Shown: piece by piece, positions 1 to 64,000 of the stretch
Layout of the letters: every line of letters begins with the position of its first letter
How positions within the stretch are numbered: the first letter of the stretch is position 1
Assembly: GCA_963966185.1 (NCBI GenBank)
Contig: CAWZYM010000312.1
Coordinates: 62,001-126,000, forward strand
DNA from: Rhabditoides inermis
Taxonomy: Eukaryota > Nematoda > Chromadorea > Rhabditida > Rhabditidae
Length of the DNA stretch: 64,000 nucleotides
Direction: 5' to 3'
The notes under the pieces: generated by a model
Told to the model about the DNA's origin: nothing
The model's input: the letters and a program-made list of their open reading frames with translations, nothing else
The model's database searches: none
Position numbers and translations under genes: made by a program

Positions 1-1513
1 CGGACGGGGTGAGTTGGAATATGATATATGAACGAACCACTTTCTCACTCAGTTGGGACCACAACTGTATGTTTTTTAGCCGACCCTCCATCCTCCCGTT
101 CTTCCCGGCAGGCAGTGCGTGATCCATACGCCCTATGGGACACCCGACAGCCGGTACTATACACACTCGACAGGTCACTCGGTGAGGACAGTACATATAA
201 GTAGCCAGCTATGGTCGTTTTGTGTTTGACAAAGTTGATAAGTTAGTGATAAAGAAGAGGCAAAGTTTATCAATCGTAGAGATCAATCAGATAGGGTTGC
301 TAGTTGAGGATTCAGGGTTTATGATTCATGATTCATGATTCATGATTCAATATTGCTTCTTTCAGGCCCGGCCGCGCGTTCGCAGATCTCAGCTGCCATC
401 CACTTCTGGCAGCGATACTCCTGTCTGCAATTCAAGCAAGCGTGAGTATCTCTTTTCAACTTTTCAATGAAACCAGAGTCACATTGACCAACTTTTCAAT
501 ATGGATAGTTTTCATGACTGAAAAAACAGTTGATGTACGATTATAACGATACTCAGCTACCATTGACGATATGCATCATGTTCGATTCTTGAGATAGTTC
601 TGAAACGTAATCAAAAGAGCGCAAAATCGAAGCAATACGAAGTTTCAGCGACGATGTGACTCCATGGAACGCGCCGCGTATTCGGTTCTACAAGGGAAGA
701 GGGTGCTGGAGTATGATAGGAAGGTGAGTCGGAGACATATTCAAACAAACACTAATATTACTATACAAGACTCTCTCACTACAGTTTTTTTTCTGAAACT
801 TTAATTTTAATTGTTCGTTGTCGAAGTACGTTTCAAGTGTATTATGTTTTTGTTGTTCGTAGGCTATTGCTAATTTTTGATCAACCTTGTTTGTAAAAAT
901 TAACATTGTTCAATGTTTCAAGCACATAAATATATTGCAGACAGCCATTCGCTCGGAGTCAAGATCTCTCTCTGGGTGCGGGGTGTGAGGAGGTGGGGAG
1001 GGGGTGGAGGTGTTCAGTACATTCCAGTCACAAGTCACAAGAAAGTCAAAGAAGAATGTGTTGAAAAGTACTTAGTAGTTGGCTTTTGATCTCTTTCATC
1101 AGACCGACTGTGATTCGAGAACAGACAGAAAGTCGCGTTGAAGAGATTGTTTATTGCACAACATTGAAAGACATGTTTGCTCTTTCAAACATAGCTTTTG
1201 TGAAATGTATGAAATTTGTGTGTTGAATTTTGTAAAGTACATATATTATGTCGTGGATGTCGCCACAATTTTACAGCAACGATGACTGTTTTGGTATAAC
1301 TTTGATGTTTTGGTATAACTTTGAAATGTATTATCATGTATTTATTATTTCCTTATTCAGTTCGCAACGGCTTCTCACGAGCTGGCACACGCATTGGGGC
1401 TGTTTCACACACAGTCACGGCCAGACAGGTAGGAGGAAGAGGATCTCTCTCTCTCTCTCTCTTTCTCTATCTCTATCTCTCTCTATCTCTCTCCCTCTCT
1501 CTCCCCATCTCTC

Positions 1514-1566
<53 letters not shown>

Positions 1567-1591
1567 GTCCCTCTTTCTTTCCTCTCCTCTC

Positions 1592-1632
<41 letters not shown>

Positions 1633-2829
1633 ATCTCTATCTGTCTATCTACATATCTGTCTCCCCTTTCTCTCGCTACCTGTCTCATTCAGGGACGGTG
1701 CAGTTGTGATCAACCCCAGCAACGTCTACCCGAGTATGATGGGCAACTTTGTGAGAGTGAGAATTACATTTTTACTGTTTCAGTCAGATCGAACAAGACT
1801 TATCATTACCTACATTGAGACCATCTGGGATACAAAACGCCCTTAAAACGAATATAACTCATGTTTCGAAGAAATGAATTTGGGAAAAGAACAAACAACT
1901 ACATACAAAGAAAAAACTGTAATGCTGTATTCTGAACTTGTTTTAGATGCCGTGGTTCGTGGCTGACACTCACAACATGAGCTACGATGTTGGATCAGTC
2001 ATGCACTATAGTCCATGTGAGTGGATTGGATTGATATACTGTCCATATCAAGAATACAACAACGGAGATGAACCACGATGGGTTTGCGTGAAGTATCTGT
2101 CGATGAATTCTTCTCGTCGGGATCCGACATGAAGGAGGGGTGGTGTGCTTGGTCTGAGTGAGTGACAGGCTGTGATTATGATATATTCGTGATATTCGTG
2201 ACGTTATAAGTTATTTCAACTTGTTGTTATTACTTATGCGCATATAGTGGATGATATCAGATTCGTATTATCAATCAGTTGTGGTCATGTATTTTATGTC
2301 CTGACCGAAACTTACCACATGCGTAATACTAATGCATATAGCACTTTTTTTGATAAAGTGATATTTTTGCGCTCACAAGAATTATATCATTTTGTATCAT
2401 CCGTAACACTGTTCATGTTTGAGCTGAAACATATTCACTCTCCATTTGCAGACGCATTCGCGCGCGATCCCTCGAAGCCAACGATTCTCACAAAGGACTG
2501 GCGATATCAGACAGTAATGGGACAGAAGACAGGGCCCTCGTTTGGAGACGTCAAACTAATCAACAGGATGTACCAGTGTGCGGAAGGTGAGGAGAGAGAG
2601 GGAGAGAGAGGGAGAGAGATAGGGAGAGAGAGAGAGAGATAGGGAGAGAGAGAGAGAGGAGGGAGAGAGGGGGGAGAGAAAGAGAGAGGAGAAGTAGAGA
2701 TAGAGAGGTAAAGAGAAAGGAGGAGAGAGAGGAAGATTTTAATTGGAAATGTTCATCTCAAATGGTATGGTGTTTGAAGAGTTTGGAATTGATATCGTGT
2801 TATCGGGTAGTCGGTAGATGCCTTGGAAA

Positions 2830-2861
<32 letters not shown>

Positions 2862-2895
2862 GGAGAGAGGGGGAGAGAGGGAGAGAGAGAGAAAC

Positions 2896-2953
<58 letters not shown>

Positions 2954-4101
2954 GAGAGAGAGGGAGAGAAAGGGAGAGAGAGGAGGGAGTAGAGATAGAG
3001 GGAGTAAGGGAGAAAGAGAGAGAGAGGGGAGGGAGAGAGAGAGAGTTGCAGGCAACCCGTCCCTCTCCGCTGTACACTGTCTGAACACCGGCCTTCCTGA
3101 CTCGAAACACCCCGGCGCATGTATCTGCCCGGCTGTCTTTGAGGCAAGAACATACACCCAATTTCAAGGGTCATCTTTTATGTAAGAAATTCGATTAATA
3201 ACTGTAGCATTTCCGCAGATGTGTATTACATGATTAGGGGTTTTTACTTTATGACTACCTTATGAAACGTATTGCAGAATTAAGAGGACAATTATCGACA
3301 TATGTTTCTCTGGGCGCACATAGAAACCACATGTATAACTCAATTCCTTTGTTTCCATTTGATGATTACAAATAGTTAGTTTTCCAATACTGGTTGCAGG
3401 GCGCTGACTGTTCGCGGCGTCGCATCGGAGACGCGTCCGTGTGCAATGGGGAGGGTCTGGTGGTGAGAGGAGGGAGGTGGAAGACCTGCATAACTATCAC
3501 TATGACTACCTACCTAATACGTCTATACCTTCCTTCACATACGTCGACCTACTTATGACCTATGTACCTAAACTACCTGTAGCTATAACTATAACCTGAT
3601 ACCATGTTACCTTATAGCTGTAACTAAGTGTATTTTTGACCCGATTCACCCAGGCGACGTCTTCTGTGCAGAATCTGACTGGCGTGTATGGGAAGGCTGA
3701 CAACAAGTACTCGACAGATGCGGTCGACTGTGTCTGGCATATCACGGTGACATGAATCACACTTCTTATTCCAACTCCAACTTCTGAAATGTCAGGTCCC
3801 CTCGCCGCAAAAGATCGAAGTTCGTGTGCTGAACATGCCCGAAGAGGTGCGTTTCTCATACGTTTCCCACTAACAAGTTTAGACATCTTTTAAATATGGA
3901 ATACGTTAGAGGTAATGATTTACTTACTCTTCACTGGTTATGTTGTATGAGTGATTCGATAAATGGTTGAGTTACGGTTCTTGTAACAAAAATAATGATG
4001 ATGGAAATAAAACGAGGTGCATAGGTGTGTACGATTGGGTGCGACTATCGAGGAGTCGAGATCAACATAGGAGACTGGGATTCGGCCGGGATGTGGTGAG
4101 G

Positions 4102-10591: not shown

Positions 10592-13500
10592 ATGGAGGAT
10601 ACTAGCAAGAACATTTTGAACGAGTCTCTGGTGAAGGTGAAGTACTCGGAGCGGGGCGAGGACGGGCGATTCGCGGTTGTGGATAAGGGGGAGGACGAGG
10701 TCGACGTAGCCAGCTGCCACTCTTCATTCGAGTACGTTTGTCCCCTTCTATCTTCACATTTCATGTTTTTGTTTGCGTTTGTTTGACCTGTCAATGTAGT
10801 TTACAACTTTGTTGTTGTCGTCTATATATGTTTGTTGGTTACATCTACATTGTGTATCGGATATATCGGTAGCGTGCATGCTGCGTTTGCAGTTCGCTTC
10901 CTCCACCTCCGATTCCGAGCAATCAGCCGGTGGTCGGCAGAAGGGCCGACACCAGGGTGAGTGCAGAGTGGTTATCACCCAAAAATATATCTCAATCTCA
11001 GTTAAATTAATATAAATCACAACTAATCTTTACACGATTTTGTTTCAGTCATTCATGTTTCCGTTAGACGAAGCGTTTGTCTTTGAAGAGTAGACGTTGT
11101 TGGTATCGGAATCTGATATGCGTTGCAGATCTGTGTGACGGACTCTGCGTGCGCCCTTGTCGGCAGTCGAGCCACCCTGCCTGCCCCTCCCCGACCGCCC
11201 CTCGCGCCTCCAAAGCCCAACAGAAAACACTTCCTCGAGAAGACCGACGACAGGTTGGTGACATGCTGTAGCTCTTCACACTTCACTCTTCACATACTGT
11301 TCAAAATAACATCAACGACCTGCTTCCTACAATCAATGATGTGATTCCGATTGCAACCGTGGTAAATTGCGAACTGCCCCGGTAACTCCTGGTTAACAAT
11401 TTCAACGATTTCATGTGTGACGTGAGGAGAGTGGGTAGAGGGTAGTGGTTTGGAACCTTGGAACCTGGCCATGGTCATGTGCGGTGCTGCCTGGATGAAC
11501 CTGGTCATGTGCGCAGATTGTCCACACTCGTTTCAAACTCTCGCTTGTGACTCGAATGTGCGCAGACCTGCTTCCTGAATCTCTCTCTCCAAAAAAACGC
11601 AGAGTGTGATATAGGGTTGGTTGCAGCATGGTGCGCCACCCGCGCTTCCGGTGCGCGCAGCTCATCTGCGTGTGCGTGTTCGTCTGCCTCATGCTCGGCG
11701 GACTCGCCACGCTCGGATACTACTACTGGATGACACACACCTGCGCCGGTGAGTCGGCGGCGCATACGCCACGGCTATTCGCCTTTTACAAAGCCTTTTT
11801 AATGTTCCACGGTTCCTTGAAACTCTTTGAAATTGATGTGTTAGCATTTGCGGTATTGCTTTTGGTTGTAGGCGTTCTGTCGTCTGTCGCTTTCTCGGCG
11901 CCAGTGTTGTACGAGCCAGCGATGGCCGGGGTGGTGGAGGAGGAGGGCGCGAGGGACAAGCTCATCCACAGATTCACCACCATCGTCTGTCGGTGAGTGG
12001 TTTTGATTTGTTCGTACGTTCGTAGTTTCGTACATTACTTCATTCATTTACGTTTCATGTTTTCGTGGCGAGGTTGTAGATGTGTACCATGGCTACAAGT
12101 GTGCTTCAGATCGTCTAAACAATCGAACGATCATCGAACAATTTCACACGATGATGAGGAATTGGCAAATAAAAGAGACTAGTTCACAAGTAAAGAAGAA
12201 ACAGAATCCGTGTTTCGGACCCTAATCCGCAAACATGATGTATGTAGTACTGTGTTGCAGTAACTTCTCGTCTTCGCGAGGCCGGGAGAGACACTCGGCA
12301 GTGGCGAGGTACAGCAAGCTGTTCCGGCAGTACGTCGACAACTACAACCACATACACAAGGTGAGCTGGGGAATCACGTAGAACACGAAGGGGAGTAAGG
12401 TGTAGGTGAGCGGGCATGGTGAGGGAGGTATACGGTAAACACAAGGTGAGCGGGCAGGGGCAGATGTGTGGAGCAGGAATACTATCCATCTGTACACGGT
12501 AGGGTAAAACTAGCTTGTCTCACGACGGTCTAAACCCAGCACCCAGCTCACGTTCCCTATCCTTATTAGAGGGGGAACGCTTGCGCAGAACACGAAGTAG
12601 TAGAGGAGTAAGGTGTAGGGAAAGAATACAATGGAGTGGGATCTTGTTGTATCTTGTAACCATCTCACATTATTGTATTTCACGTGTTCTTCGTATTAAC
12701 TATAGTCTGCGCCAGAGCGATAGTTTTCGATCTACCTCTCTTGCAGTTCGAAATACGGTGCCATAACCATCTGCTTCTCTTGTTTTGCGCGCTATTGCCG
12801 CGAGCTGACTCTCCGTCTTCCTCTGATCTACTCCACCGCGCGTATTGAGAGAATATTGAGAGAATAGGACTATATTACATTTCGTGTTTCAGTCTGCCAC
12901 GTCGTGGGACGAATGGGCGCGCTTCGATCTCGACCGCATACCCGCGCACGCCACCATGGGAACGGACGACATGCAGGATGTGGGTCGCGCATCTGCCTAG
13001 TCTTCACTTCAGTCGTATTGTTTCTTCTGAACGTGCCGCGGGCGTGCAACTTCTAAATCTGAACATCCGCGGTCGCATAGATTATATGCTATTCAGAATT
13101 CAGATGCCATGCCAAGTCAGATTTCAGCCGGTCCTCCCACTTTCAGCCGGTCTCAAGTTTCAATTTTCAAAATGATTGAGGCGTTTGTCATGCGAATTTC
13201 CTGATGAGCATTGTGAAATTGTAATGCCAATTGTAAAACGTGTTGCAGTTGATTGACGTGTTTCAGATGCTGGGCTATCCCGTCGCCGAGGAGGCTGGTG
13301 AGGTGGCGGCAGTGGAGAGTGCGCGGTACGAGATGGACAGGGCACCGCCCGTCAGCAAGGAGTACAATGGCACCAAGGCTGTCGGCAAGCAGGGTATGAG
13401 GGGGGGGGGGAGGAAGGCAGGGAGGACATTCCCGCTGTCTTATGGCGAAAACGGACTTTCGCGCGACTTTGAAATCTCCTTCCCCTTCCACTTCGGGACT

Positions 13501-15326
13501 GTCCGAGAGAGAGAGAGAGGGAGAGAGGAAGGGAGAGAGATTTAGGAAGCAGGTGTGGTTCCGGCTGGGCGATGGCGACTGCCGCGGCTGTGAGCAATGA
13601 CGATGTAAGCAGTGTTTTGTGTGTTTTTGATAGGATTGACACTTTCAGGATTGGCTCTATGTGGCGGATCGACTGATCGCTGACAAGGAGTACAATCACG
13701 GATGCGGGGGCGGACACGCAAGCAAGGCGCTGCAGTGAGTTGCATTGATTGATTTATTGATTGGTTGTTTATCAGTCTGATTCCGGCCGACAATATTAGT
13801 GATGGGTAGATCAGCACACTGCACACACAAGATGAGGACATGATTGATGTACATTGCAGGTACATTTTGGAGTCGTCGCAGCGAAGCTTGGATTCGGTGC
13901 TGTCTGCTGCTGCCGTGTCGGGGTACGGCCGGCTCGTGTCGAACGGCTCGTCGACTGTGGAAGAGGAGATGGTCAAGTGGATGAAGAACGGACAGGGGGT
14001 CATAGTCGGTGGGTGCACTTATGTCATCTCTGGATTAATAATACGTTTATTACGGGAGGAAACAGTACTAGACAGCATAATCAACAATAAGCCATTTTAT
14101 ACGGAATGGATTGATTGAATGGAGAATCTAGAGGTGATGATCCCTGTTTCCTTGTTCTTCTATGTGAATATGATGTGACTTTTTTTTACGAGAACGAAAG
14201 CGACCCTAAATGCCTAAATCTGACCTGAGCCTGAACACTGAAATTCTGAAGAACAGGCAAGATTTTGTCCAGACATATTTATCGCATCGGAATATGAATA
14301 TATGAAAGTCGAAAGCGGTTCCCTTTCAGAGGTGCTGATCCCTCCTTCGCTGTTTTTCTATGTGGATGGCCTGCTGCGTCCGATGCCCGGAGTGTGCAGT
14401 GGAGAGACGGCTCTCGGCAGGCACACCATGCTCGTCGTGGGGTGAGTTTCTAATGTTTTTCCAAGTAGATTAATGTAATGTTTGGTATTTGATGTTTCAC
14501 GTATCTTGTAAAAAGTCTTTTCGTGTTGTTTTGTTTGGCATACTATCAGAACGTAATTACTTTGGAAAACTCAATGTACATTCAATCAATCAATCAATCG
14601 TTTATCCGGAATCGTTATATCTGAATATGACAACACAATCATAATGATATGGAGCATACAGTAGTGTCTAAGATACTAGATACAAAGGCTAACGCCGGGG
14701 AAAGACAGGTAGGCTGACGAGGTTAGTGGTGGGAAAACGATACTTGATCGATTCCTGGATTATTAGAGTACCATAATCATTCCTGGACCATTAGAAGACC
14801 ATTCTTGACGTGTAGAGCTCCGGGGTTTCCTTGGCTTCCATGCCAACTATGTAGTATCTCCTCGCGCCATAGCTGCTTCCACATGAGGGTACTTCCCGCC
14901 GCCTCACTGGTTACTCGGGAAGGATTCTTGTCGATGACCGAACAGTCGGCGGCGGTGGGGCAAAAATGAGGACCCGACCGCACGCCGTGGGGAAAAGAAT
15001 AAGAATACATTATATCGTTTTAATTCAAAATACCAAAAATATCACTGATTGATTGATTGATTGATCATTGATTTCCAGCTACGGCCGCAGGAAAGGCGTC
15101 GCCTACTGGATGATTCGCAACTCATGGGGAGAGGGTGGGTGTTTATTAGTTGTACACGGACACAAATCATATTAATGGTAATAATTAATTAATAAACAGC
15201 CTTTTGTTGTCAACGTAATGTGTGAGATATTGAGTTTCAGAGTGGGGCGAGTCTGGCTACCTGTTCCTCGAGCGCGACGTCAACGCGTGCGGCATCGCCC
15301 ACAACCCCATCGTCTGGTGGAAGTAG
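10592..15326 (+). CDS. Type II membrane protein with a catalytically dead papain-family (C1A) domain
   Basis: Fourteen exons, 483 aa: 10592-10731, 10893-10956, 11129-11253, 11627-11748, 11872-11992, 12261-12360, 12893-12979, 13249-13393, 13546-13604, 13649-13734, 13860-14008, 14330-14441, 15079-15134, 15241-15326. All phases fit. Residues 1-117 are an acidic then Pro-rich cytosolic part. About residues 119-142 form one membrane helix (CAQLICVCVFVCLMLGGLAT). An I29-like helical region follows (about 190-260), then a C1A domain. The active-site motif QGxCGSCW reads KQGSRCGSGW, so the nucleophile is Gly308. His431 (GRHTMLVVGYG) and Asn451 (IRNSWGEEWGESG) are kept, as is GCGGGHA. Exon 9 is placed by phase and homology. 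A pseudoenzyme is the natural reading: perhaps an inhibitor, binding or scaffold protein. A second in-frame acceptor for exon 8 lies at 13266. Confidence 0.87.
12713..12870 (+). repeat. Dispersed repeat B, copy 1
   Basis: About 130-155 bp in an intron of the C1A-like gene, matching 38022-38180 in the same orientation (shared blocks AGTTTTCGATCTACCTC and TTGTTTTGCGCGCTATTGCC). Confidence 0.8.
14127..14175 (+). pseudogene. Relic duplicate of exon 12 of the C1A-like gene
   Basis: About 45 bp before an early TGA resembles the start of exon 14330-14441: both have an AG acceptor, then read EV(M/L)IP and SLFFYV in the same frame. It sits in the intron just upstream of the true exon and is no longer open. 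Confidence 0.6.
14583..15010 (-). mobile_element. Possible retrotransposon 3' fragment in an intron
   Basis: On the minus strand the end of this block reads CGATTCCGGATAAACG followed by an ATTG-rich tail. That resembles the end of the RTE-like element at 59865 (CGATTCTGGATAAATA, then ATTTG repeats). An open minus-strand frame spans 14777-15010. The intron 14442-15078 is much longer than its neighbours. The link to a specific element is inferred. Confidence 0.3.
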
Positions 15327-20800: not shown

Positions 20801-21158
20801 GTTTCAGTCTTCTCGCGAGCAGCTGTCTGTGGCGGAGTTCGCGCAGGCTCTGCTGGTGATCCCGAAGACGCTGTCTGCCAACGCAGCCAAGGACTCGACG
20901 GAGCTGGTGGCCAAGCTGCGCGCCTTCCACAACAAGGCACAGAGCAACAAGCAGCTGACGCACCTCAAGTGGGCCGGCCTCGACCTGGAGTCGGGAGACA
21001 TCCGCGACAACAAGGAGGCCGGAGTGCTCGAGCCCCTCATGTCCAAGGTCAAGTCGCTCAAGTTCGCCACAGAGGCGGCCATCACCATCCTGCGCATCGA
21101 CGACCTCATCAAGCTAGACAAGAACGAGGTGCCCCAGGGAGACCAGTGCGGCATGTAA
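17851..21158 (+). CDS. cct-1: T-complex protein 1 subunit alpha (CCT1)
   Basis: Alpha subunit of the cytosolic chaperonin CCT/TRiC, which folds actin, tubulin and other proteins using ATP. Thirteen exons, 550 aa: 17851-17926, 17987-18072, 18138-18242, 18453-18596, 18649-18737, 18871-18979, 19063-19135, 19202-19328, 19441-19616, 19732-19808, 19864-19946, 20053-20209, 20808-21158. Group II chaperonin motifs are intact: TNDGATI (about 59-65), GDGTTS (91-96), GGGAVE (415-420) and the conserved NLKW/GLDL-like C-terminal region. The subunit call rests on alpha-type stretches such as [30 protein letters not shown] and [17 protein letters not shown]. The start is the first ATG after a CAG at 17844. 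Codon use is strongly GC-rich at third positions, as expected of a highly expressed gene. Confidence 0.97.
20242..20270 (+). pseudogene. Fragment of CCT1 exon 11 inside intron 12
   Basis: Matches about 24 bp of exon 19864-19946 (CCTGATCAAGGG-ACCAAGGCC with one change). It is not flanked by splice sites that would keep frame. Confidence 0.5.
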
Positions 21159-22992: not shown

Positions 22993-23044
<52 letters not shown>

Positions 23045-23208
23045 GGGGGGGGAGCTCACCTTTGCCCTGCCCGGTTCAAGGTGTGGCTGAACAGTGGCTA
23101 TCTTGGCCTTGTCGAATGGTCTCTTGGGGGGAACGGGGGAGAAGGTGGCCGCCGCGTCGGAGAGGTCATCGAAGTACTCGTCCTGAAGGAGGAAAGACTC
23201 TCCTCTCT

Positions 23209-23250
<42 letters not shown>

Positions 23251-25148: not shown

Positions 25149-25184
<36 letters not shown>

Positions 25185-26986: not shown

Positions 26987-27026
<40 letters not shown>

Positions 27027-28450: not shown

Positions 28451-28495
<45 letters not shown>

Positions 28496-30845: not shown

Positions 30846-30885
<40 letters not shown>

Positions 30886-43211: not shown

Positions 43212-43290
<79 letters not shown>

Positions 43291-46200: not shown

Positions 46201-49200
46201 AGGTTTTGTTTGAATTTGAAAGCGTAATGTACACTTTTTTCTGAAATGTTATTAATACGTTTCATTCACTTTTCATTTTGAAGAAATGATGTTTTCGATA
46301 ATGGGTTGATAGCTGACACTGTAATCTTTTAATTGTTTGGTTACGCGTTTCTCTCCAGGTTCAAGTACGGCGGCGCGGACGACGACACTGCCGTGGAGAT
46401 GGCGTTCTCGAAGAAGAAGGTGGAGGAGAGGAAGGACTGGCTGACCAAGTGGATGGCCGAGAAGAAGGAGCGGAAGCAGAGGGGACTCGAGGAGGACTAC
46501 CTATACAACAAGGTGCGCGAGGAAGGGGTACTGTAGGTATGACTGCTTATGATTATCTCTGTTCAGGACACGAAGGCGGTAACGTTTGCCGAGTTTGTGA
46601 ACAAGGAGCTGGTGCTGTTCTCTAATATGGACAATGAGCGCTCGATTCCCTCGCTCGTCGATGGATTCAAGCCGGGACAGAGGAAGGCGAGTGCTGGTTG
46701 GGAAATCGGCATTGATATCGTTGTTATTGATATAGTATCACGATGGCTAATAATATGTATGGGGTGAAACGTGTAGTATTGTGCTCCAACAAAGTTGGGC
46801 GAGTGGAGGGGAGGAGAATTCGATAGAGGCATAGAGGAAACAAATTGATATTTTCATGGTATTTTCAACGATCTTCAAATTGACATGGTTTCACTTTGGT
46901 CTGCTATATGTACAACATGAAACGTATTATGTTGGGCTATGAAAACAATTGTGTATGATTGTAATGTAACCCTGTGTGTGTTGCAGGTGATCTTCACGTG
47001 TTTCAAGCGGGCGGACAAGCGTGAGGTGAAGGTGGCGCAGCTGGCGGGAGCCGTCGGAGAGCTGTCCGCCTACCACCACGGAGAACAGTCTCTCATGGGA
47101 ACCATTGTCAACCTCGCACAGGTACTGTAGCCGAATGGAGTACAAGGATGCTTCACACATGAAAATGAAATGTCTGGGAACAATGACAATGGAGGGGCAG
47201 CAGTACAGTACTAGATGTTATGGTTCTAGAAAATCCACGATGACGTTGTGTCTTCCGAATACTGTAGTCATATGTATTGATTGCAGGACTTTGTCGGCTC
47301 GAACAACGTGAACGTGCTGCTGCCTATTGGACAGTTTGGAACGCGTCTGCAGGGAGGCAAGGACAGCGCCAGCCCCCGTTATATCTTCACTCAGTTGAAG
47401 TGAGTTGTGACTGCCTGTTTGAGTGGTATTGTAGTCTACAACTGTGCCTTCCAGCCCGGTGACCCGCGCCCTGTTCCCTTCGGCCGACGACAATGTGCTG
47501 CGCTTCCTGTTTGAGGACAACCAGAGGATCGAACCCGAGTGGTGAGCGGGGTAAAGACTATGAAGATTATTAAGAGTTGTCCTCATCATCAATTAGCACC
47601 AGAAACATGAGGGATTGCGTAGTAATGATGGTGAAGCATGCAATTTGTGGCTACGTCTGAGTGGTGAGTGGGAGATGAAAACTGGAATTAACATTTGAAA
47701 ATGAGCTATTGCATAGTATTGATAGTGGAACGTACAATTTGTGAATACCCATGTATTTGTTCAGGTACTGTCCGATCATTCCTCTCGTGTTGGTGAACGG
47801 AGCGTCTGGCATCGGCACAGGCTGGTCGACGGCCATCCCCAACTACAACCCCCGCGAGATCACCGAGAACATCCGACGACTGGTCAAGGGACAGGAGCAG
47901 AAGAAGCTGGTCGGTGGGGTAGTACTGGGGTATGGTTTAGGCGGGGGAGTGGAACGTATTTGATAGTGTTTTGTCGTTCGACGATCCTGTAGTAATTGAG
48001 ATGTGGAGCAGAAGAAGCTGGTCGGTGGGGTGGAAGTTCCGAGAGAGAGGGTCAGAGAGAATTGGTTGATGGTAGTGTGAGCCAAGTTTATGTGGAGAAT
48101 GGAACGTATTTGACGATCATGTATTAATTGATCGTTCGATTTGGAGCAGAAAAAGCTGATCGGTGGGGTGAAGTACAGAAGAAGAGAAACGATTCGACGA
48201 TTGGTGGATGTTTATTTTGGGCATGGTTTAGGTAGGAAGTGGAACGTATATGATCGTGTTTTGTCGTTCGACGGAATTAATTGGTGTGTTATTGAAGTTC
48301 ATTACAAGAACTGAAGACTGAAGTGAATGATTAGGCGGTGCTCGCAATTGTTGAATGTGATTATCATTGCTGTTGTTGCGATCTGTATCTGGAACATGAC
48401 TAGGGGTGAAGCTTATTGTTTCACATTCTGTGTTCTGTGTCTGATTTCATATTTGTTGATTTGAGGCTCCGTGGTTCAAGCACTTCCGCGGACAGGTGGA
48501 CAGGATCGACGATATGCGCTTCTGCGTGTCCGGAGAGGTATAGTAACTCTCCATACAGTACTGTATTACCGTACCCGTGTCATTTTAGATTGCGGTGCTG
48601 TCGGACGACACGATCGAGATCACGGAGCTTCCGGTGAAGACGTGGACGCAGCAGTACAAGGAGAGTGTGATCGAGCCGATGATGGAGGGAAGCGACAAGC
48701 GGCCGGCTGTTATCAGGTAAGGAGAGAGGGGGAGGGGAGAGAGAGAGAGAGAGAAGGACAATTCACTGCATTTGTCCATTTTGTCTTGTAGGCTAGGTTG
48801 ATGAAATTTCGCTGATGAACATTACTGATTACCAATGATTGGTTGTTGCAGGGGATATCAATAGTTTGAAACGTATAAAAAGTAAGCGTTGTGTTGTTTG
48901 CAGCGACTTCAAGGAGTACCACACGGACACGACTGTTCGGTTCGTGGTGAAGCTGGCTGGGGGGAAGCTGCGGGAGCTGGAGAGGGAGGGGCTGTACAAG
49001 GTGTTCAAGCTGCAGAACGTCATCGGAACCACCTCCATGGTATGTGGGCGGGAGAAGTGGACTGTCTTGACGGCATGTTGTTGTTTTTTTATTGGTAAGG
49101 GTCACGCAGAACAATTTGGGTGTATATTTGCGAAGTCGCGTATATGGAATGAGTGAAACGTAGTTTGAGTGTTTCTACACCATTGGTCCATTGGTACTGG

Positions 49201-51907
49201 TATTATAGGTGTGGATACAGTTGATTTTGGAGTAGTGCAACTGTATCTCTGTAACACTGGAACAATTGATGGTTGATATTCGTAGGCAGGTTATGATATT
49301 GGTGAAACATTTCGCTTCGTTCAGGTTCTGTTCGACGCTGCCGGCTGTCTGCGCAAGTTTGACACTCCCGAGCAGATCTGCGCCGAGTTCTACGGAACCA
49401 GGTACGGTATTGGTGTACTATAAAGTACTGTAGGTGGCATTGCTCCCTGCATGGTGGTGACGTGTCTCCTCTTTAGGAAGCAGAAGTACGTGGAGAGGAA
49501 GGCGTTCCTGGAGGGTATGCTGCGCGCGCAGAGCGAGCGCCTCTCTGCCCAGGCACGCTTCATCCTCATGAAGATCAAGGGAGAGATTGTGATGGAGAAC
49601 AAGAGGAAGGCCGCCATCGTCGACCAGCTCGTCAAGAAGGTACGCCAATGGACATATTACGGGGACTTGTATGTTTCACTCTGGTCATGTTATTTGCTTA
49701 GGATAAGCTGCTGTAATAGAGCGTTTCGATGAGCTTTCAAATTATTATTATTTTGTTTTACTATTTTGTTTGCTTTGCAGGGCTTCGAGCCGGACCCGGT
49801 GAAGAAGTGGAAGGAGATTCAGAAGAAGAAGGAGCTGGCGGAGGGCGGGGAGGTGTCGGACAACGAGGAGGAGGAGGAAGAGGTGGGTAGACTGAGGGAG
49901 TCATAGACGTGGGCACAGCACTGATTGGATTGTGTGAATGGCTGTAACCTAGAGAGATCTTAGGCAAGGGTGCAGGTGTTTGTTCACAGGACAGTCTGGA
50001 AGTTGGAATGTTCAGATTGTATGAATTCATGTAATCCGGTCGCTTGCAGGACGCTTCGGCTGCTCAGAAGAGTCTGGACACGAAACTGTCTGACTACGAC
50101 TATCTGGTGGGCATGGCCCTCATCAAGTTGTCCGAGGAGGAGAAGGACAAGCTGCTGCGCGAGAGCGAGCAGAAGCTCACTGAGCTCAAGACTCTGGAGG
50201 GAAAGAGCTGGAGCGACCTGTGGACGGAAGACCTCGACAACTTTATCGTGGAGCTTGACAAGCAGGTACGGAGAGGAGCTGACATGTTCCAATACCGTAA
50301 TCAATGTTTCAGGAGGCGAAGGAGCGCGCGGACATGGAGTCGAACATCAAGACGCAGGCGAAGAAGATGGCCAGTATGCCGGTCAAGGGAGGCAAGAAGA
50401 ACGCCGCGTTCACTGCCGTCAGTCCACACTCCGTTCTTCCATTCATTAACCTGTCTTCCCCTTTCAGGAGGTGTTCCCGGCCAAGGACGGAATCCGCGTC
50501 GTCCCCGAGATGGACAAGGCGATGAAGGACAAGTACGAGAAGATGAACCAGCCCAAGAAGGTACGGGGGGAAGGCGTTTTCGCTTCTGCACTGTCAATTG
50601 GTCCGCTGAGTTTGTCCAGTTGATAACGTGAAACGCATTGGTTTCATGGAATCACTTTTTTCAGGAGCGCAAGCCGAAGGAGCCCAAGGAACCGAAGGAG
50701 GTGAAACCGAAGAAGGAGAAGAAGGAGGGCGCCGATATGCGCTCGTTCCTCTCATCGGTAAGCAGGGAGGGAGGGGTACGGTAGACTGGGGGTACTGTAC
50801 GTTGCGAAACTATTTCTATGTTCAGAACGGAAAGGAGGAGAAGAAACAGAAGAAGGACGAGTGGAACTCGGATGCGAGCAGCGACGAGGACGAGGTACGG
50901 TGGGAGGGGAGGGTACTGTAGTCAATGTGGGATACTGTAGTTGTCAGGATTACTGTATTTATTCTGTTTTTTTCTTAGGTTGTCATCGATGACGACTCGG
51001 ACGATAGCGGCTCTGACATTGAGGAGGTGATTCCGACCAAGTCGAGCAGGAAGGTACGGTAGGGTTACTGTAGTTTGAAAATGGTACTGTACATGCAATA
51101 TACTATGTATTGTTTACAGCGCGTGTCGGATGGTTCGACGAAGGAGAACAATGACGACGCGATCATGTTGGATGACGACGAGCCGACTCCGAAGCCGACT
51201 CCCAAGAAGGCTGCTCCCAAGGCAGCTCCCGCCAAGAAGGCGTCGCCCAAGAAGAAGAAGGTCGTGGAAAGCGACGACGACGACTTCTTTGTCGACGAGG
51301 ACGAGAAGCCGAAGAAGGCCGCCCCGGCCAAGAAGGTAAGAGATGGTAGTTGTGAGTAATTGGACGTAACAGTGTTGGTTGCAGGCTGCTCCGAAGAAGA
51401 AGGTTGTGGAGAGTGACGACGACGACGAGGATGCATTCGATGCGTTGACCAAGAAGAAGGCGCCCGCCAAGAAACCGGCAGAGAAGAAGGAGAAGGAAGA
51501 GCCCAAGAAGAATGGAGCCGGAAAGATGACCGACTTCTTCAACAAGAAGGTGGGTGAAAAAGGGATGGGATACTGAGTTATTGTATGATAGTGCTTCACT
51601 TATTAATTTCAGCCGGCTGCGTCTAAGAAGAAGGCTGGATCTGACTCAGATGACGACATTCTGATCGACGACAGCCCGGTGCAGAAGAGGGATGCGCCCA
51701 AGAGGGCGAGGGTTACGGTGAGTGGGAGGAGAGAGAGAGAGAGAGAGAGAGAGTAGAGATAGTGGAGGGAGGGGGGAGAGGGAGAGAGATGAGCTTCGCC
51801 TCTTTCAGAAGGTGAACTACGGTGGCGACTCTGGCTCCGACTCGGATGAGCCCAAGCAGAAGGCCAAGAAGAAGAAGACCAACATTATCGACTCTGACTC
51901 GGACTAA
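41469..51907 (+). CDS. top-2: DNA topoisomerase II
   Basis: Type IIA topoisomerase that passes one DNA duplex through another with ATP; nuclear, needed for chromosome condensation and segregation. Forty-one exons join in frame to 1,568 aa (41469-41495, 41554-41656, 41786-41955, 42131-42288, 42447-42507 ... 51385-51549, 51613-51717, 51809-51907). GHKL ATPase: [14 protein letters not shown] (125-138) and GGRNGYGAK (202-210). TOPRIM: EGDSA (504-508) and DQDQDGSH (Asp584, 586, 588). Active-site Arg847-Tyr848 in SPRYIFT (exon 47287-47399). An acidic/Lys-rich C-terminal tail of about 450 residues (exons from 49781) carries probable nuclear signals and a Lys-rich N-terminal extension precedes the ATPase. 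Two introns use GC donors: 46139-46358 and 46687-46986, fixed by the conserved readings RHRIRFKYG and [19 protein letters not shown] at 52191. Confidence 0.98.
42330..42365 (+). other. tRNA-like 5' half in a TOP2 intron
   Basis: TTCGCTGGTATAGTGGTTA followed by ATCCGCGTATGTC resembles the first half of a tRNA-Asp (A-box TGGTATAGTGGTTA). No 3' half or B-box follows, so it is a fragment. Confidence 0.3.
43201..43292. repeat. (CT)n microsatellite
   Basis: Starts near the donor of TOP2 intron 43201-43386. Confidence 0.95.
46257..46925. promoter_or_regulatory. Three intronic ACGTTTCA motifs in TOP2
   Basis: Copies at 46257-46264 (+), 46765-46772 (-) and 46918-46925 (-), in the two GC-AG introns. 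Part of the window-wide set described in the findings. Confidence 0.4.
47880..48290 (+). repeat. Degenerate tandem duplication spanning a TOP2 exon-intron junction
   Basis: The end of exon 47765-47909 and its donor (GAGCAGAAGAAGCTG|GTCGGTGGGGT) recur at about 48006 and again, more diverged, at about 48147. Each is followed by related intron sequence (GTGGAACGTAT, TCGTTCGAC). Unit length is about 120-150 bp. Confidence 0.75.
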
Positions 51908-52776: not shown

Positions 52777-53495
52777 CTACAGACAAGAGGTTATTGGGCT
52801 AGTTTCGGGCGTCAGCGGGCCAGGAGGGATGTCAGTCGGATGACCGGCCTCGATCCATCCACAGACGAGGTTCTTATAGTGCTCTTGGGTGGGGGCGAGG
52901 CGGACGCCGAGCGATCTGGAATGTAAACACCATTGTCCAGAGTGGTTATCTCCGAGAGCTTGGGAGAGAATATGTTGTGAGAGGATCTGCGGGTGACTCG
53001 TGGAATGTGAAGGGAATCCGCACATTATATCTCACAAAAATAGAATAGGGAGAATAGGGACCATCCAGTATATGTCTATCCCTTACAGTATGTGTACAGC
53101 TCCGATGACGATATTTATATGCACTTTTAATTGATGAAATTATAAAACAATAAGTATGATTGACATGTTGAGAATGTAGGTCTGAAACGTAGAAGTGATG
53201 TGAGTCGATCTTTTCCTACCACCCTCACCTGTTCTTTCGTTCTCCTCTTGTCGCGGATACAGATGTGTTTCCTGGTTGCTGTCGTGCAGTCGCTGCAGAT
53301 TCACGATCTGGCCTGGCTCTTCGAGTTTCTCTCGCCTGAAAGAGTATCGTGAGACACAATGTACATGGACAATGTACTCATAGATGCAAGGCTTCCACCA
53401 CCTTTCTCTTCCACGAGCAGATCGTAGGTGTGTAGATCGATACCAGCGTGTCCACTTCGTGCTGGGATCGACATCACACGATACTCAAATGCGTT
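52777..53495 (-). other. Exon-like blocks of an uncertain gene
   Basis: Three minus-strand blocks with good splice signals: 53402-53495 (TTTATCAG acceptor, GTGGTG donor), 53229-53335 (TTTCAG acceptor, GTGAGG donor), 52777-52915 (TTCCAG acceptor, TAG stop). More than one frame stays open. One phase-consistent chain ends with SLGVRLAPTQEHYKNLVCGW and GPLTPETSPITSCL. Which frame is used cannot be settled by eye, so no product is assigned. Confidence 0.35.
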
Positions 53496-58258: not shown

Positions 58259-61200
58259 ATGTCCCGCATACACATCAGAGAGTGCGTCTCTCTCTCTCTC
58301 CCTCTCTTCTCCCCCCTCTCTCTCCCTCCCTCCCTCCCACTCTCTCTCTCTTCCCATTCTCTTCTCGGGTTTTCTCTCTCATCCCTCTCTCCTCCCTCTC
58401 TCTCCCTCCCTCCCACTCTCTCTCTCTCTCACTCCCTTCTTCCAGCCTCTTCGGAATCCCACGCCGTCACCGCCGCCGTTACGAAGAGGAAGAGGACAAC
58501 TGCTCCGTCTACTGCGTGGGTATACTGTACCTACCGTAACCCTAGGAATACCGTACTCTTACCGTAATTCTAGTACGAAGACAACGCGCCTCGCTCTGAG
58601 TACGAGATGGAGAAGGAGAAGAAGAGGAGTCTGCTGGGTCGGGTGAAGAAGAGGGTGAAGGCGGTGTTCAAGGGAAAGGAGAGGGAGGAGGAGGAGGTGG
58701 GAAAGGGGCATCGATTGATATTGATAGATAGTTTATGTATCACGTAGCATGATTCTCATTAGCGGTAAATTAAACTGTTCCATTTGCCCATCTTCTGAAA
58801 CGTACCTGTTCTTGTAGAATTGAAACGACATATATAGCACATAGACAAAGAGCAAAATATTTTCTATATTTCACAATAAAAAGTTTTTGAAGTAGCGTAC
58901 CTAGACTTGCATTAATTTCTCAAACCACTTTCTCTACCAGTCGCCGTTGTGAAACGTACTTGACGATATGATTATATGATTATATATATTTATATATATA
59001 TATAATATGTATGATATATAATATATATATGATATACAATATATGTAAGATGATATATATGATATGAATGATATATAAGATTATATTATATATAATATAT
59101 CGTGTTTGTTTTGAGATGGAGCAGCCTCGGACGACGCACTCTGGCCGAGTCGTGCACATTCTGCCCACACTCGCACCCGAGTGGCATGAGATGGAGAAGG
59201 TCGGAGAGAGAGAGAGGGAGAGAGAGAGAATGAGGGAGATGAGTGAAGGAGGGAGGTGAGAGAGGGAGAGGGAGGGAAGGAGTGATAAGGGGAGAGAGAG
59301 AAGGAGAGGGAGGGAGGGAGGGAGAGAGAGAGAGGAAGAGGGGGAGAGAAGAAGAGGGGTAGAGAGAAGGAGAGAGGGAGGGAGGGGTGAGAGAGAGGAG
59401 AGAAGGAAAGAGAAAGAGGTAGAGATAGGGGGGAGAAGGAGAGAGAAAGATGGAGAGAGAGAGGGTGAGAGAGAGGGAGAGAGAGAGGGAGAAAGAGGGA
59501 GAAAGAGGGTAAGGGGGAGAAAGGGAGAGAGATGAAGAGAAGAGAAGAAGAGAAAGAAAAAAATGAAATAGAGGGAGAGAAAGAAAGTTAAAGAGGAGAG
59601 AGGAGGAAGGAGGGAGAGAGAGAACAAATGAAGAAAGAGCGACATTCAGAAAATGACGTTCTTCCGCCGTTGTCTTCTGCCTTCCGATGAGAAGCTGCTT
59701 GCTATGATCAACGAGAAATATCCATTCAACGACGAACTGTGGGTGACTGTTTTCAAATTACGGTAACTTACCGCACACCGCGCTTTCCAGCATGCCGACT
59801 GACGGCGAACCGGGAAGTGGATGCACGTGGCAGGTTACTATCGTTTAATTTTCGATTTGTTGATTCAAATCAAATCAAATATTTATCCAGAATCGCTTAT
59901 TCATGTACATATTGTGGTCGTCCAGGTCGTCCAGTCTTCTTGGGGGTCCAATTGACTGTAGCCTTTGCCCATCGATGGCCGTCCGCATTGTAGAGTCGTT
60001 CCGTGAACTTCCATTTCCGGTGTCGTACTTCTTGCAGAACGTCTCGTAGCCGAGTCATCTGCCGAATAGTGCTGCTCCGGATTCGGTCTCGTAGGGTGAC
60101 TCCCAGCAGCTGGCGCTCCATCTTCCGCTGCGCAGTCCGTAGTCGCATCAGTTCGGTTTGGGGGAGACTCCATGTCTCTTATCCGTACGTCAAACAGGGA
60201 AGTACTCCGGCGCGAAAGACCTTCCTGCGGTGTCGCATCGGAGCTCGTCGTATTGTCAAGAAATGCTTGTGTCGTTGGAACGCGGCCCAGCCACTCTGGA
60301 TGCGGCGGGTGATCTCGTCCACGTCGTTCTTCTGGCAGCTCAGCAGCCTCCCAAGATAGATGAACTCGTCCACGTATTCAATCCTCGTTCCGTTGAAAGT
60401 GATCTTCGTCTTGTTTGCATTCGTCATCACCATCGTTTTTTTTCCTGTTTACCTCCAGTCCGTACTTCTTGCTTTCCTCGGCAATGTCCTTGAGCATCCT
60501 TTCTGCCGCCGGTGCAGATTTCGCAAAGACGAGGTGTGTCAGCGAGCCGAGGTGTGTCAGCTGTTTTCCGTCGATGTCGAAGCCGGCGCTGTTGTACTTG
60601 AAGTCCAAGCCCTTGTACACCTTCGCGAGAACGCTGTTGAAGATGTAAGGTGAGAGGGGGCAGCCTTGCCGAGCTCCTTTTCCGATAGAGATGTCAGCCT
60701 TCGAATGTCGTAGTGCCACTCGCGTCTTTCCAGTAGAGTAGATCGCCTGCATCAGCCGTGTGTAGCTCGCATCCATTCCGTCTTCTGCCAGAGAGGTCCA
60801 TGCGTCGTCGAACTCCACACTGTCGTACGCCTTCTTGTAGTCGACGAATATGACGTAGAGTTGTAGGTTGTAGCGGTGCGCACGGTAGATCATCTCTCGG
60901 CAGGCCAGGATTTGATCAGCACACGAGTATCCTTTGCGGAATCCCGCTTGCTCCGGCGGTTGATGGTCTTCCAGGGTCTTCTGTGTTTGTGCGAGTATGC
61001 ATTTGACGAGCAGCGTGCGAGTATTATTGATTGATTATCAGAAACCACTGTGCTGGATGTACGCTGGAGACGAGCGCAAGAGTGGAAGAAAGCCAGACGG
61101 AGCATACATGTGAGGGTTACGGTACTTTCAATTTACTACGGTAACCAGTAACCAGGTTCTTCTCTCACCTCGGTTTTCTCGCGTCGACCGAGCCGGAGCC

Positions 61201-61384: not shown

Positions 61385-61436
<52 letters not shown>

Positions 61437-61886
61437 CTCTCTCTCTCCCTCCCTCCTTCCCCCCTCCCTCCCTCCCTCTTTCTAGCTCACTGCCCGTCTC
61501 CGCATAGCCCATGAGGACTGGTCGAATCCCGATCCCTCCAAGCGCACGGACATCGTGTGGGTTCTGGGTGAAACAATCAAATACGTTTCACGAAACCATG
61601 AAATACACTATTTATTTGTGACTATATTAACCGCACAGCTTATACCGCTGACGTAAACAATATGAACAAAGATCATTTATCGATTATCTTACCTACTTTC
61701 TAACTGTAGTGCGACCCGCGTCTTCTATGGTCCTTCCTGTCGGCCGATGGTCGATCCGCCTGATACGGTACAGGTACTGTAGGGGTACTGTAGTGGGATA
61801 CGGTATTGTGAATTGCAGATCGCGTACGGGCAGTTTCTGGCCGAGTTCAGCAGCGTCGCGGAAATGGCCAAGGTGTTCAGGGTAAG

Positions 61887-61933
<47 letters not shown>

Positions 61934-62204: not shown

Positions 62205-63088
62205 AGAGGGAGAGAGGGAGAGAGGAAGAGAGAGAGGAAGAGAGTGAGAGAGAGAGAGAGTGAGAGAGAGAGAAAGAGAGGGAGGAGATATACTTACGAC
62301 TTATTACTTAATACTTACATGTTCATACTGTATTTCTTTTGTCAACTGAATGTATTGGTATTACAATAAACTCTGTCAGCTATCAAACGTCAATGTTCTC
62401 ATTCTCACTCACAAGAACTAGTGTTGGTTTTGGTTACAACAACGTCCTTATTTTTTTGAATTGATTTACTGCCGATATCAAGAGTACAACAACGGAGATG
62501 AAACACAAAGGGTTTAGTCTGCGTGAAGTATCTGTCGGTGGTTCCTTCTTGTCGGCATCCGACTTGTAGGAGGGGTGGTGTCCTTGGTCTCACGCTTAGG
62601 TCGACGTCGCGACAGCCATTGTAGAAAGTGTACTCGGCGGGTTCAACTCCGTGCTCCGAGGATTCCTCAAAATCCAAAGCCAGCAGCGAACATGTAGCGG
62701 GTACCGTTGATCCAGCAATTCTCCACGTAGACCGGGCTTGGCGGGTTTGACGGGGAAAATAAACTGGGGGACCGACCACTCGTGGGCAGGGGAAGATGAT
62801 GGAATCTGTCCTTATTTTGTCTGTGTTTTAATAGCTATTTCACATTTCAAAAAAAAGTTTTATTACAACTGAAATGTCAAGAAAGAACACTGCACACACA
62901 AAAATTATTAAGATTATTAGGGGCGGAATTCGAAAAATTATTATATCATACGCTAACGCACAATCTACACAAACAAGTCACAAAAACTGCGCAGAGAGTT
63001 TGTACTTTGTACAACGACGGAGTGAGTTCACTGGAAGAGAGGCAAACGGTTGGGGTGAAGTAGATCGACAATCAATCGATAATCGATA
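62205..63088. other. Intergenic stretch with dispersed repeat A
   Basis: GA tract 62206-62285, AATAAA at 62365-62370 for the upstream gene, repeat A copy 2 at 62471-62602. A minus-strand frame of about 100 codons around 62480-62779 reads like decayed coding sequence (TWRIAGSTVPATCSLLALDF) and may be part of the same repeat element. No intact gene. Confidence 0.5.
62471..62602 (+). repeat. Dispersed repeat A, copy 2
   Basis: Matches 2041-2157. Confidence 0.75.
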
Positions 63089-63318
63089 TCACTGCTCGTG
63101 CTGCTGTCTGGCGAGTTCGGCCCGGTATTGCTGCACCTGCGACCTCAGCTGAGCCAATTCGCTCTTCAAGTCGTCGTTTTCGTTCTCCAGAATCTGGAAG
63201 AGCATTGATGAGAGAGATATAGAGGGAGATAGAAAGTGAGATAGAGAAGGAAGAGAGAGGGGGGGAAGAGAGAGAGGGGGGGGAAGAGAGAGAGGGGGGA
63301 GAAAGGGAGGTAGGTAGG

Positions 63319-63375
<57 letters not shown>

Positions 63376-63419
63376 AAGGGAGGGAGAGAGAGAGAGGGGA
63401 GAGAGAGAGGGAGGGGGGA

Positions 63420-63462
<43 letters not shown>

Positions 63463-63805
63463 AGAGAGAGAGAGGTGTCCATACCTGCACTCGCCGACTC
63501 CTATACTCGAACACTGCCCGTCTGTTGGCCCGGCATCTCTTGGCCGCTTCGTTGTTCCGCCGCCGCCGCTCGCAGTACGTGGGCTGGAAAGGAAACAGTT
63601 GTTAATTGATTAGAAATCGATCGATTGATTAATTGTTTTCTTGATTGAGTGATATATCGATTGATTGATTGATCGATCGATCGATTGCTTCCCCACCCAC
63701 CGTGCCCTCCTCTCCACTAGCAGTGGGCGAGTGGCTGTCGTATGACATGCTGTCGGAATCCGACCGAGAGGAAGTGGACATGGTGGACGAGGAACACGGC
63801 TCTTG
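63089..63805 (-). CDS. bZIP transcription factor, PAR/CES-2-like basic region, 5' partial
   Basis: Three 3' exons, all phase 0: 63701-63805 (Ser/Asp-rich, SSRSDSDSMSYDSHSPTASG), 63485-63583 and 63089-63193 (TGA). The basic region ERRRRNNEAAKRCRANRRA has the NxxAAxxCR DNA-contact pattern. The leucine zipper (QILENENDDLKSELAQLRSQ) runs directly on for about five heptads to the C-terminus, the usual place for the PAR/CES-2 and related ZIP groups. It should bind DNA as a dimer in the nucleus. The conserved Ser in many PAR-type basic regions (KRSR) is Cys here. The N-terminal part lies beyond 63805, probably past the window end. Confidence 0.85.
63205..63478. repeat. (GA)n purine tract
   Basis: Fills the intron between the two bZIP-coding exons. 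Confidence 0.95.
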
Positions 63806-64000
63806 CTGGAAGAGAACAAGATTAGATTATCGATTTATCGATTAATTGACTATCATGTATCGTCTTTTCTGCTCTACGTTTCAGTTGTTGCTTCTAGAGA
63901 ATCATGGCTCTTGCGGCAATAATCAAACTGTCATATGTTTTTATTCTATCACATCATTTGTGTACATTATGGTCAAGAAGCCCGCGACAACTGTAAAATT
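63806..64000. other. Intron of the bZIP gene up to the window edge
   Basis: A/T-rich, with one ACGTTTCA copy at 63876-63883 (antisense to the gene). No further exon is visible. Confidence 0.5.

What the first reader, a model, noticed from the sequence alone, without database searches (positions are those of the whole stretch)
601..63883. ACGTTTCA is strongly enriched in introns: candidate piRNA (21U-RNA) promoter motif
Seen: exact ACGTTTCA/TGAAACGT octamers at 601(-), 3263(-), 12050(+), 23420(-), 25329(+), 25396(+), 25861(+), 26625(-), 27874(-), 28746(+), 29399(+), 42418(-), 46257(+), 46765(-), 46918(-), 48867(-), 49154(-), 53183(-), 58796(-), 58950(-), 61583(+), 63876(+): about 22, where random sequence of this length would give about two. 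All lie in introns or between exon-like blocks, none in a coding exon, and roughly two thirds are antisense to the host gene. Several one-base variants (e.g. ATGTTTCA at 23774, ACGTTTCG at 35294) are also present. Established knowledge: Caenorhabditis type-1 piRNA genes carry the upstream core CTGTTTCA. Inference: this genome may host many single piRNA transcription units inside introns of active genes. I did not establish the downstream start sites.
Basis: partly seen in the sequence, partly recalled or inferred. Interest (0 to 1): 0.88.

Follow-up and report, generated by a model that had tools for sequence, protein, structure and literature searches.

The report
Intronic piRNA promoters with TATA-like box
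In this roundworm genome the eight-letter word ACGTTTCA is scattered through predicted introns and most copies examined around this window are followed at a fixed distance by a start-site signal, so these copies likely each switch on one tiny piRNA gene that would help silence foreign DNA in the germline, an arrangement already known from other roundworms, here with a sharply placed TATA-like box.

Summary
All 24 window sites, and 59 of 59 in the surrounding 154 kb, fall in introns predicted by my own gene model. The missing start sites can be read from sequence: a YRNT initiator, its T 46±1 nt after the first core base, follows 44 of 59 local cores and 45 of 60 sites from other contigs; other distances average about 15. 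A low-stability patch lies 24-39 nt after the predicted start, where precursors would end. The genome encodes a PRG-1-like PIWI. These are sequence hallmarks of Pristionchus-type piRNA loci (Beltran 2019), here in an unnamed, likely Clade V nematode. The core is AYGTTTCA (the C. elegans core CTGTTTCA is not enriched), and a TATA-like YATAT sits 25-29 nt before the start (422 genome-wide, 66 when shifted 6 nt), where some U6 genes carry TATA. C. elegans needs AT-rich sequence downstream of its core (ATTF-6 paper, 2025), so this box may be a sharper form of a known element. Not every octamer is a promoter: 53 sites on low-density contigs lacked the signature. Expression and PIWI loading are inferred.

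The parts
542..608 (-). core 608-601, predicted start CAAT, predicted 21U 562-542
3205..3270 (-). core, start TAAT, predicted 21U 3225-3205
12050..12057 (+). core only; no start signature, likely a chance or dead site
23361..23427 (-). core, start CAAT, predicted 21U 23381-23361
25329..25336 (+). core; ACAT at +16..+19 but no YRNT
25396..25403 (+). core; no YRNT at the right distance
25861..25927 (+). core, ATAT, start TAAT, predicted 21U 25907-25927
26567..26632 (-). core, start CAAT, predicted 21U 26587-26567
27815..27881 (-). core, weak start TATT, predicted 21U 27835-27815
28746..28753 (+). core; ATAC, no YRNT
29399..29464 (+). core, weak start CATT, predicted 21U 29444-29464
42359..42425 (-). 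core, start CAAT, predicted 21U 42379-42359 (TOP2 intron, antisense)
46257..46322 (+). core, TCAT, start TAAT, predicted 21U 46302-46322 (TOP2 intron, sense)
46706..46772 (-). core, CATAT, start CAAT, predicted 21U 46726-46706; second-best score in the window
46859..46925 (-). core, CATAT, start CAAT, predicted 21U 46879-46859; best score in the window
48808..48874 (-). core, GATAT, start TAAT, predicted 21U 48828-48808
49154..49161 (-). core with CATAT box; start AAAT (not strict YRNT)
53183..53190 (-). core only; no YRNT
58738..58803 (-). core, start TAAT, predicted 21U 58758-58738
58891..58957 (-). core, start TAAT, predicted 21U 58911-58891
61583..61648 (+). core, start TATT, predicted 21U 61628-61648
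63876..63943 (+). core, start TAAT, predicted 21U 63923-63943
41469..51907 (+). host gene: DNA topoisomerase II, 41 predicted exons, 6 core sites in introns
   Evidence: ab initio model; Pfam DNA_gyraseB and HATPase_c
21499..31751 (-). host gene: 27 predicted exons, 1,024 aa, no Pfam match in the 375 aa tested, 9 core sites in introns
17851..21158 (+). neighbouring gene: chaperonin CCT alpha, 13 exons, no core site
10592..15326 (+). host gene: papain-family protease, 1 core site (12050) in an intron

Best explanation
ACGTTTCA is the core of small promoters that lie in predicted introns and that likely each drive one piRNA (21U-RNA) gene of the Pristionchus type, in an unnamed, likely Clade V nematode. 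Shown by sequence, counted from the first A of the core as 0: the extended core AT-ACGTTTCA-C; a TATA-like YATAT at +15 to +19; a YRNT initiator (mostly YAAT) with its T at +46±1; and a low-stability, A-rich patch at about +68 to +83. Inferred: a SNAPc/PRDE-1-type complex (USTC) would bind the core, TBP (or an AT-hook protein such as ATTF-6) the TATA-like box, and RNA polymerase II would start on the purine at +44, make a capped RNA of about 28 nt, and pause and be released at the weak patch. Trimming of two 5' nucleotides and of the 3' end would then leave a 21-nt RNA with 5' U, loaded on the PRG-1-like PIWI encoded on contig C52.
For: Enrichment. Introns: 59 of 59 under the gene model; 6,593 sites of other octamers of the same composition are 69% intronic, 10% exonic, 21% intergenic, so 59 of 59 has probability about 3e-10. 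Start site: seen first in 63 non-tandem sites, most of them on C312, and written down before testing; in 60 sites from other contigs, chosen only by core plus AYAT, the free positions show A44 0.72, A45 0.62, T46 0.60; YRNT with T at 45-47 in 45 of 60 and 44 of 59, elsewhere mean 14.2 and 15.1, largest 25 and 21 (binomial 7e-17 and 5e-15). Window sites scored with weights trained outside the window: 15 of 24 above the 95th percentile of random window positions. Spacer from core to 21U 38 nt, inside the 35-42 nt of C. elegans (Billi 2013, passages). Weak patch: local minimum at start+30 in both sets and none in the low-density set (further dips lie at the start and at the TATA-like box); paired tests in the 60 sites p=7e-6 and 3e-6. 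TATA-like box: 251 against 47 and 422 against 66 genome-wide. PIWI: C-terminal exons score 180 bits with Siwi and 77 with human AGO2; joined exons are 54% identical to P. entomophagus and 51% to C. elegans PRG-1.
Against: No small-RNA, CAGE or ChIP data. The first planned validation failed: 53 non-tandem sites of 58 from contigs C1-C6 showed no flanking signature, not even T at -1, and only 4 of 61 sites there passed the score cut. Those contigs have background density (about 55 per Mb against 137 genome-wide), so many octamers are not promoters. Six of 24 window sites lack YRNT at the right distance. USTC genes were not searched. Intron status rests on my own gene finder, not on transcripts; 7 of the 24 window sites lie in short predicted genes not checked by homology.
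Confidence: 0.9

Rival explanations
1. ACGTTTCA is an intronic binding site for a transcription factor, insulator or chromatin protein of active genes, with no transcript of its own.
For: Intronic location on both strands with no significant orientation bias is what a DNA-level element would show.
Against: Would not explain YRNT at one distance in 45 of 60 sites from other contigs, the stability dip at start+30 or the positioned YATAT, all on one side of the motif only.
Confidence: 0.05
2. The copies are carried by a dispersed transposon or by tandem repeats, so the fixed spacing is shared ancestry.
For: Some octamers are repeat-borne: a repeat with ACGTTTCATTGCGATTCTTG[CT]CATAT makes up 21 of the 66 shifted-control hits, and tandem clusters exist (C6:415954-416152). 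Two of the 60 sites (L151, L152) are near copies, seen by eye.
Against: All 60 downstream sequences are distinct, and most positions between the elements show no strong preference. The 44 predicted 21U sequences are 43 distinct ones.
Confidence: 0.02
3. The piRNA-like units are made by RNA polymerase III, as in U6 genes, because a SNAPc-type motif and a TATA box together specify polymerase III at snRNA genes (recalled).
For: YATAT at start-29 to -25, beside TATAT starting at -30 in 3 of 6 U6 genes read.
Against: No T-run terminator: TTTT in 5 of 60 sites at +66 to +84 against 6 and 7 in the neighbouring windows, while AAAA rises to 16 from 2 and 6. The U6 PSE GCAAACCCGGCGC occupies start-69 to -57, i.e. 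core-25 to -13, where the profiles show no conserved base. C. elegans piRNAs are polymerase II products.
Confidence: 0.03

Closest known systems
Pristionchus-type (P-type) piRNA loci, Beltran et al. 2019, PMC6436959
   Same: Single units dispersed in introns; GTTTC core about 42 nt before the 21U; start two nt upstream of it; strong low-Tm region at the precursor 3' end; depletion of part of the genome (X there; contigs C1-C88 here, identity unknown).
   Different: Different species (PRG-1 54% identical to P. entomophagus). Positioned TATA-like box; the paper states that no TATA box was found at piRNA loci, in a passage on Plectus sambesii. Its motif logos are figures that I could not see, so a similar box in P. 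pacificus cannot be excluded.
C. elegans type-I 21U-RNA genes (Ruby motif CTGTTTCA, YRNT)
   Same: GTTTCA core, 38-nt spacer (35-42 in C. elegans), YRNT initiator. C. elegans promoters carry AT-rich sequence up- and downstream of the core; changing the downstream part of one locus cut its piRNA more than 21-fold (PMC11822377, passages).
   Different: Core AYGTTTCA; CTGTTTCA is not enriched here (9,977 against 9,103 reversed); intronic and dispersed, not in two clusters. Here the AT-rich element is a discrete YATAT at one place (422 against 66 six nt further).
Nematode snRNA (SNAPc) promoters
   Same: TATA position as in three U6 genes; GTTTC regarded as descended from a SNAPc motif (Beltran).
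   Different: The PSE word of those U6 genes, GCAAACCCGGCGC at -69 to -57, shows no trace in the piRNA-site profiles.

Membership tests
Type-I (motif-dependent) nematode piRNA loci | GTTTC-containing upstream core | tested here: met
   ACGTTTCA top of 1,680 same-composition octamers in 154 kb; 3.6 times the reversed word genome-wide
Type-I (motif-dependent) nematode piRNA loci | core to 21U spacer of 35-42 nt and YRNT at the start | tested here: met
   38-nt spacer; YRNT in 44 of 59 and 45 of 60 sites, 18 of 24 in the window; not met at 53 sites of C1-C6
Type-I (motif-dependent) nematode piRNA loci | low-stability (pausing) region at the precursor 3' end | tested here: met
   local minimum at start+30, p=7e-6 and 3e-6
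Type-I (motif-dependent) nematode piRNA loci | genome encodes a PRG-1-type PIWI | tested here: met
   about C52:104541-107120 minus strand, N-terminus not covered
Type-I (motif-dependent) nematode piRNA loci | 21-nt 5'-U RNA bound by PRG-1 | not testable with these tools
   no small-RNA data
Type-I (motif-dependent) nematode piRNA loci | USTC factors PRDE-1, SNPC-4, TOFU-4/5 | not tested
P-type organisation | within introns | tested here: met
   59 of 59 predicted intronic in 154 kb, gene model ab initio; not tested elsewhere in the genome
P-type organisation | about equal sense and antisense | tested here: inconclusive
   36 antisense, 23 sense, p=0.12
P-type organisation | host genes germline-active, H3K36me3 | not testable with these tools
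   no expression or chromatin data; hosts include TOP2
P-type organisation | depletion from the X chromosome | tested here: inconclusive
   contigs C1-C88 hold 0 of 251 and 6 of 422 strong sites; whether they are X is unknown
C. elegans (C-type) loci | CTGTTTCA core in dense clusters | tested here: not met
   CTGTTTCA 9,977 against 9,103 reversed; the first 100 of 251 strong sites are spread over many contigs
SNAPc/PSE snRNA promoters | PSE at start-69 to -57 | tested here: not met
   no conserved base at core-25 to -13

The most novel reading that the evidence does not exclude
In this nematode lineage the AT-rich stretch downstream of the piRNA core has become a true TATA box at start-29 to -25, so that TBP is positioned by DNA as well as by the upstream complex: an snRNA-like core plus a polymerase II TATA promoter inside introns, possibly what lets each unit fire independently of the transcription passing through its host gene.
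Probability: 0.38. Interest if true: 0.65.

Novelty: new member of a known kind. Interest (0 to 1): 0.48.

Why it matters
It shows that nematode piRNA genes can be proposed from bare genome sequence: core, TATA-like box, initiator and pause patch at fixed spacing, with about 17,000 exact-core copies above background (23,671 minus 6,586). It adds a lineage with intronic piRNA loci, and it offers a direct question: does a TATA box help short piRNA transcripts start inside genes that are themselves transcribed?

Tried and rejected
Random-site validation on contigs C1-C6 gave no signature; I kept that as a negative and took a second set from contigs C89-C185. 18S search for the species failed twice; species left open: the PRG-1 tree puts the query beside Pristionchus outside the Caenorhabditis-strongylid group, unresolved, while CCT alpha is 89% identical to Diploscapter and Necator and 85% to P. 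entomophagus. The strongest Piwi-domain hit (C245) proved to be an AGO-clade gene and was dropped as PIWI evidence. A mixed assembly was considered because C1-C6 differed, but C1, C6 and C52 have window-like 3-mer composition. Splicing element considered and rejected: sites occur in both orientations and G follows the core in only 14% of sites. Antisense bias is not significant overall; in the three genes with most sites it is 28 of 39 (counted), a post-hoc choice, left as a lead. The early AYAT element was later recognised as the 3' part of YATAT.
Full report
What was checked. The window is part of contig C312 of a 172.6 Mb assembly in 599 contigs; the genome holds 23,671 copies against 6,586 of the reversed word. 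In 154 kb of C312 including the window the octamer has 59 copies, first of 1,680 words of the same composition, the next having 26.

Where the sites lie. I wrote a small gene finder (codon usage trained on 3,618 bases of recognised coding exons, then self-trained; GT-AG introns) and ran it on the 154 kb. It recovers, among others, a CCT alpha of 550 aa, topoisomerase II with 41 exons, a protein kinase, a papain-family protease and, in the left flank, a Patched-type gene, supported in part by Pfam or homologues. All 24 window sites and all 59 sites of the 154 kb are in predicted introns; introns are 56% and 62% of bases. Of the 24, 17 are in long predicted genes and 7 in short ones of 54-212 aa without a homology check. 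Other words of the same composition (6,593 sites) are 69% intronic, 10% exonic and 21% intergenic. Orientation is 16 antisense of 24 in the window and 36 of 59 overall, neither significant.

Start sites. Profiles of 63 non-tandem sites, most of them on C312 and including the window, showed T at -1, A-Y-A-T at +16 to +19, A at +44 and +45, and A-rich positions around +74 to +77 (sites in tandem clusters dropped). I wrote these down as hypotheses. A first validation set on contigs C1-C6 (58 sites read, 53 non-tandem) showed none of it. These contigs have only background density: the first 100 listed sites end within C6, about 55 per Mb, against 137 per Mb genome-wide. A second set of 60 sites is 60 of the first 65 of the 251 genome-wide matches to ATACGTTTCAC-N7-AYAT; five were skipped by eye as duplicate-looking, repeat-like or near a contig end. 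They lie on C89-C185. There the unconstrained positions give A44 0.72, A45 0.62, T46 0.60. YRNT with its T at +45 to +47 occurs in 45 of 60, against a mean of 14.2 and a maximum of 25 at other distances; in the C312 set 44 of 59, against 15.1 and 21; in the window 18 of 24, against 5.8 and 12. With weights trained outside the window 15 of 24 window sites exceed the 95th percentile of random window positions, but only 4 of 61 C1-C6 sites do.

Spacing and pausing. Core end to T is 38 nt; C. elegans has 35-42 nt (Billi 2013, passages), and Beltran 2019 gives a motif peak 42 nt from the 21U and a start two nt upstream of it. Nearest-neighbour duplex stability has a local minimum at start+30 in both the C312 and the 60-site sets and none there in the C1-C6 set; other dips lie at the start site and at the TATA-like box. 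In the 60 sites the 14-mer at +68 to +81 is weaker than that at +50 to +63 (p=7e-6) and at +86 to +99 (p=3e-6). Beltran reports the same feature, stronger in P-type species, at the 3' ends of precursors.

The TATA-like box. The element at +15 to +19 is YATAT: 18 of 59 C312 sites match at least 4 of 5 positions, against a mean of 2.6 and a maximum of 6 at offsets 22-59; offset +17 also rises to 12. Genome-wide, core-N7-YATAT has 422 matches, and 66 when moved 6 nt downstream, 21 of these from one repeat. The earlier form gave 251 against 47. Counted from the predicted start it lies at -29 to -25. Three of six U6 genes read in this genome share a PSE word, GCAAACCCGGCGC, at -69 to -57 and TATAT starting at -30; the other three lack that PSE. 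The piRNA sites show no PSE trace and no T-run terminator, so polymerase II is the likelier enzyme. TBP-1 is reported to interact with the C. elegans USTC and to be needed for TOFU-5 foci (Weng 2019, passages; PMC11262695, passages). In C. elegans the core is flanked by AT-rich sequence; replacing the downstream part at one locus lowered its piRNA more than 21-fold, and the AT-hook protein ATTF-6 is proposed to bind there (PMC11822377, passages). So the box here may be a sharper form of that element, read by TBP, by an AT-hook protein, or both. I saw no description of a positioned TATA box at piRNA promoters in the listings or in the passages read; not all listed papers were opened, and figure logos could not be read.

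Core variants. ATGTTTCA is enriched genome-wide (18,191 against 8,089 reversed) and its 27 sites in the 154 kb show a weaker start signature (p=0.009); CTGTTTCA, the C. elegans core, is not enriched (9,977 against 9,103). The working core is therefore AYGTTTCA with C preferred. ACATTTCA and ACGTTTCG also show some signature in the 154 kb (17 sites, p=7.5e-4; 9 sites, p=0.0015).

The pathway. A PIWI-clade gene lies at about C52:104541-107120, minus strand. Its C-terminal exons score 179.7 bits with Siwi and 77.3 with human AGO2. The joined exons (670 aa, N-terminus missing) match P. entomophagus at 54% and C. elegans PRG-1 at 51%. The C245 gene that best matches the Piwi domain is of the AGO clade. 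The tree leaves the species next to Pristionchus but unresolved, so 'Clade V' is an inference.

Distribution. None of the 251 strong sites and six of the 422 lie on contigs C1-C88. The 11 of these contigs whose length I know hold 5.6 Mb, where about 8 and 14 would be expected by length (arithmetic); they hold 0 and 1. In P. pacificus piRNA loci are absent from X; whether C1-C88 are X here is untested.

Reading. Shown: enrichment, predicted intronic location, fixed downstream architecture, weak patch, PIWI gene. Inferred: factors, polymerase, precursor length, processing, PIWI loading, silencing. The system fits the published P-type piRNA organisation in a lineage of its own, with a sharply placed TATA-like box as the feature that differs most from the published description.

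Noticed in passing
L041 5940-6157 and 7974-7994 (C6:415940-416157 and 417974-417994): Tandem clusters of gaatACGTTTCA-like units (periods 11-27); similar close spacings are listed at C2:159287-159319 and C6:398612-398723. Whether they carry start signatures was not examined separately.
   Followed up: partly
window-wide (12.8 per 10 kb); also C143-C145, C205, C245: TACNGTA words (CTACAGTA, CTACCGTA, GTACTGTA) are strongly enriched in the window and vary from 0 to 23 per 10 kb between the stretches read; probably a repeat family.
   Followed up: no
C10, C60, C114, C148, C174, C216, C232, C240, C242, C261, C318, C402: A dispersed repeat carries ACGTTTCATTGCGATTCTTG[CT]CATAT (21 copies listed), often in opposite-strand pairs 586-633 bases apart, like terminal inverted repeats.
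   Followed up: no
C109:503-10788: At least eight head-to-tail U2 snRNA copies with a 1,442-base unit and a U2 start unlike the U2 copies read on C193; true locus or contaminant not settled.
   Followed up: no
window 54943-55659 (-) and 60378-61034 (-): Reverse-transcriptase reading frames of LINE-type elements; the first matches Pfam RVT_1, the second was judged by eye.
   Followed up: partly
window 29742-29826 (+): tRNA-Leu gene inside a predicted intron of the minus-strand gene 21499-31751.
   Followed up: no
C143:31712-32236 and C144:95894-96418: AGO-like matches with the same score and length on two contigs, possibly uncollapsed haplotypes.
   Followed up: no
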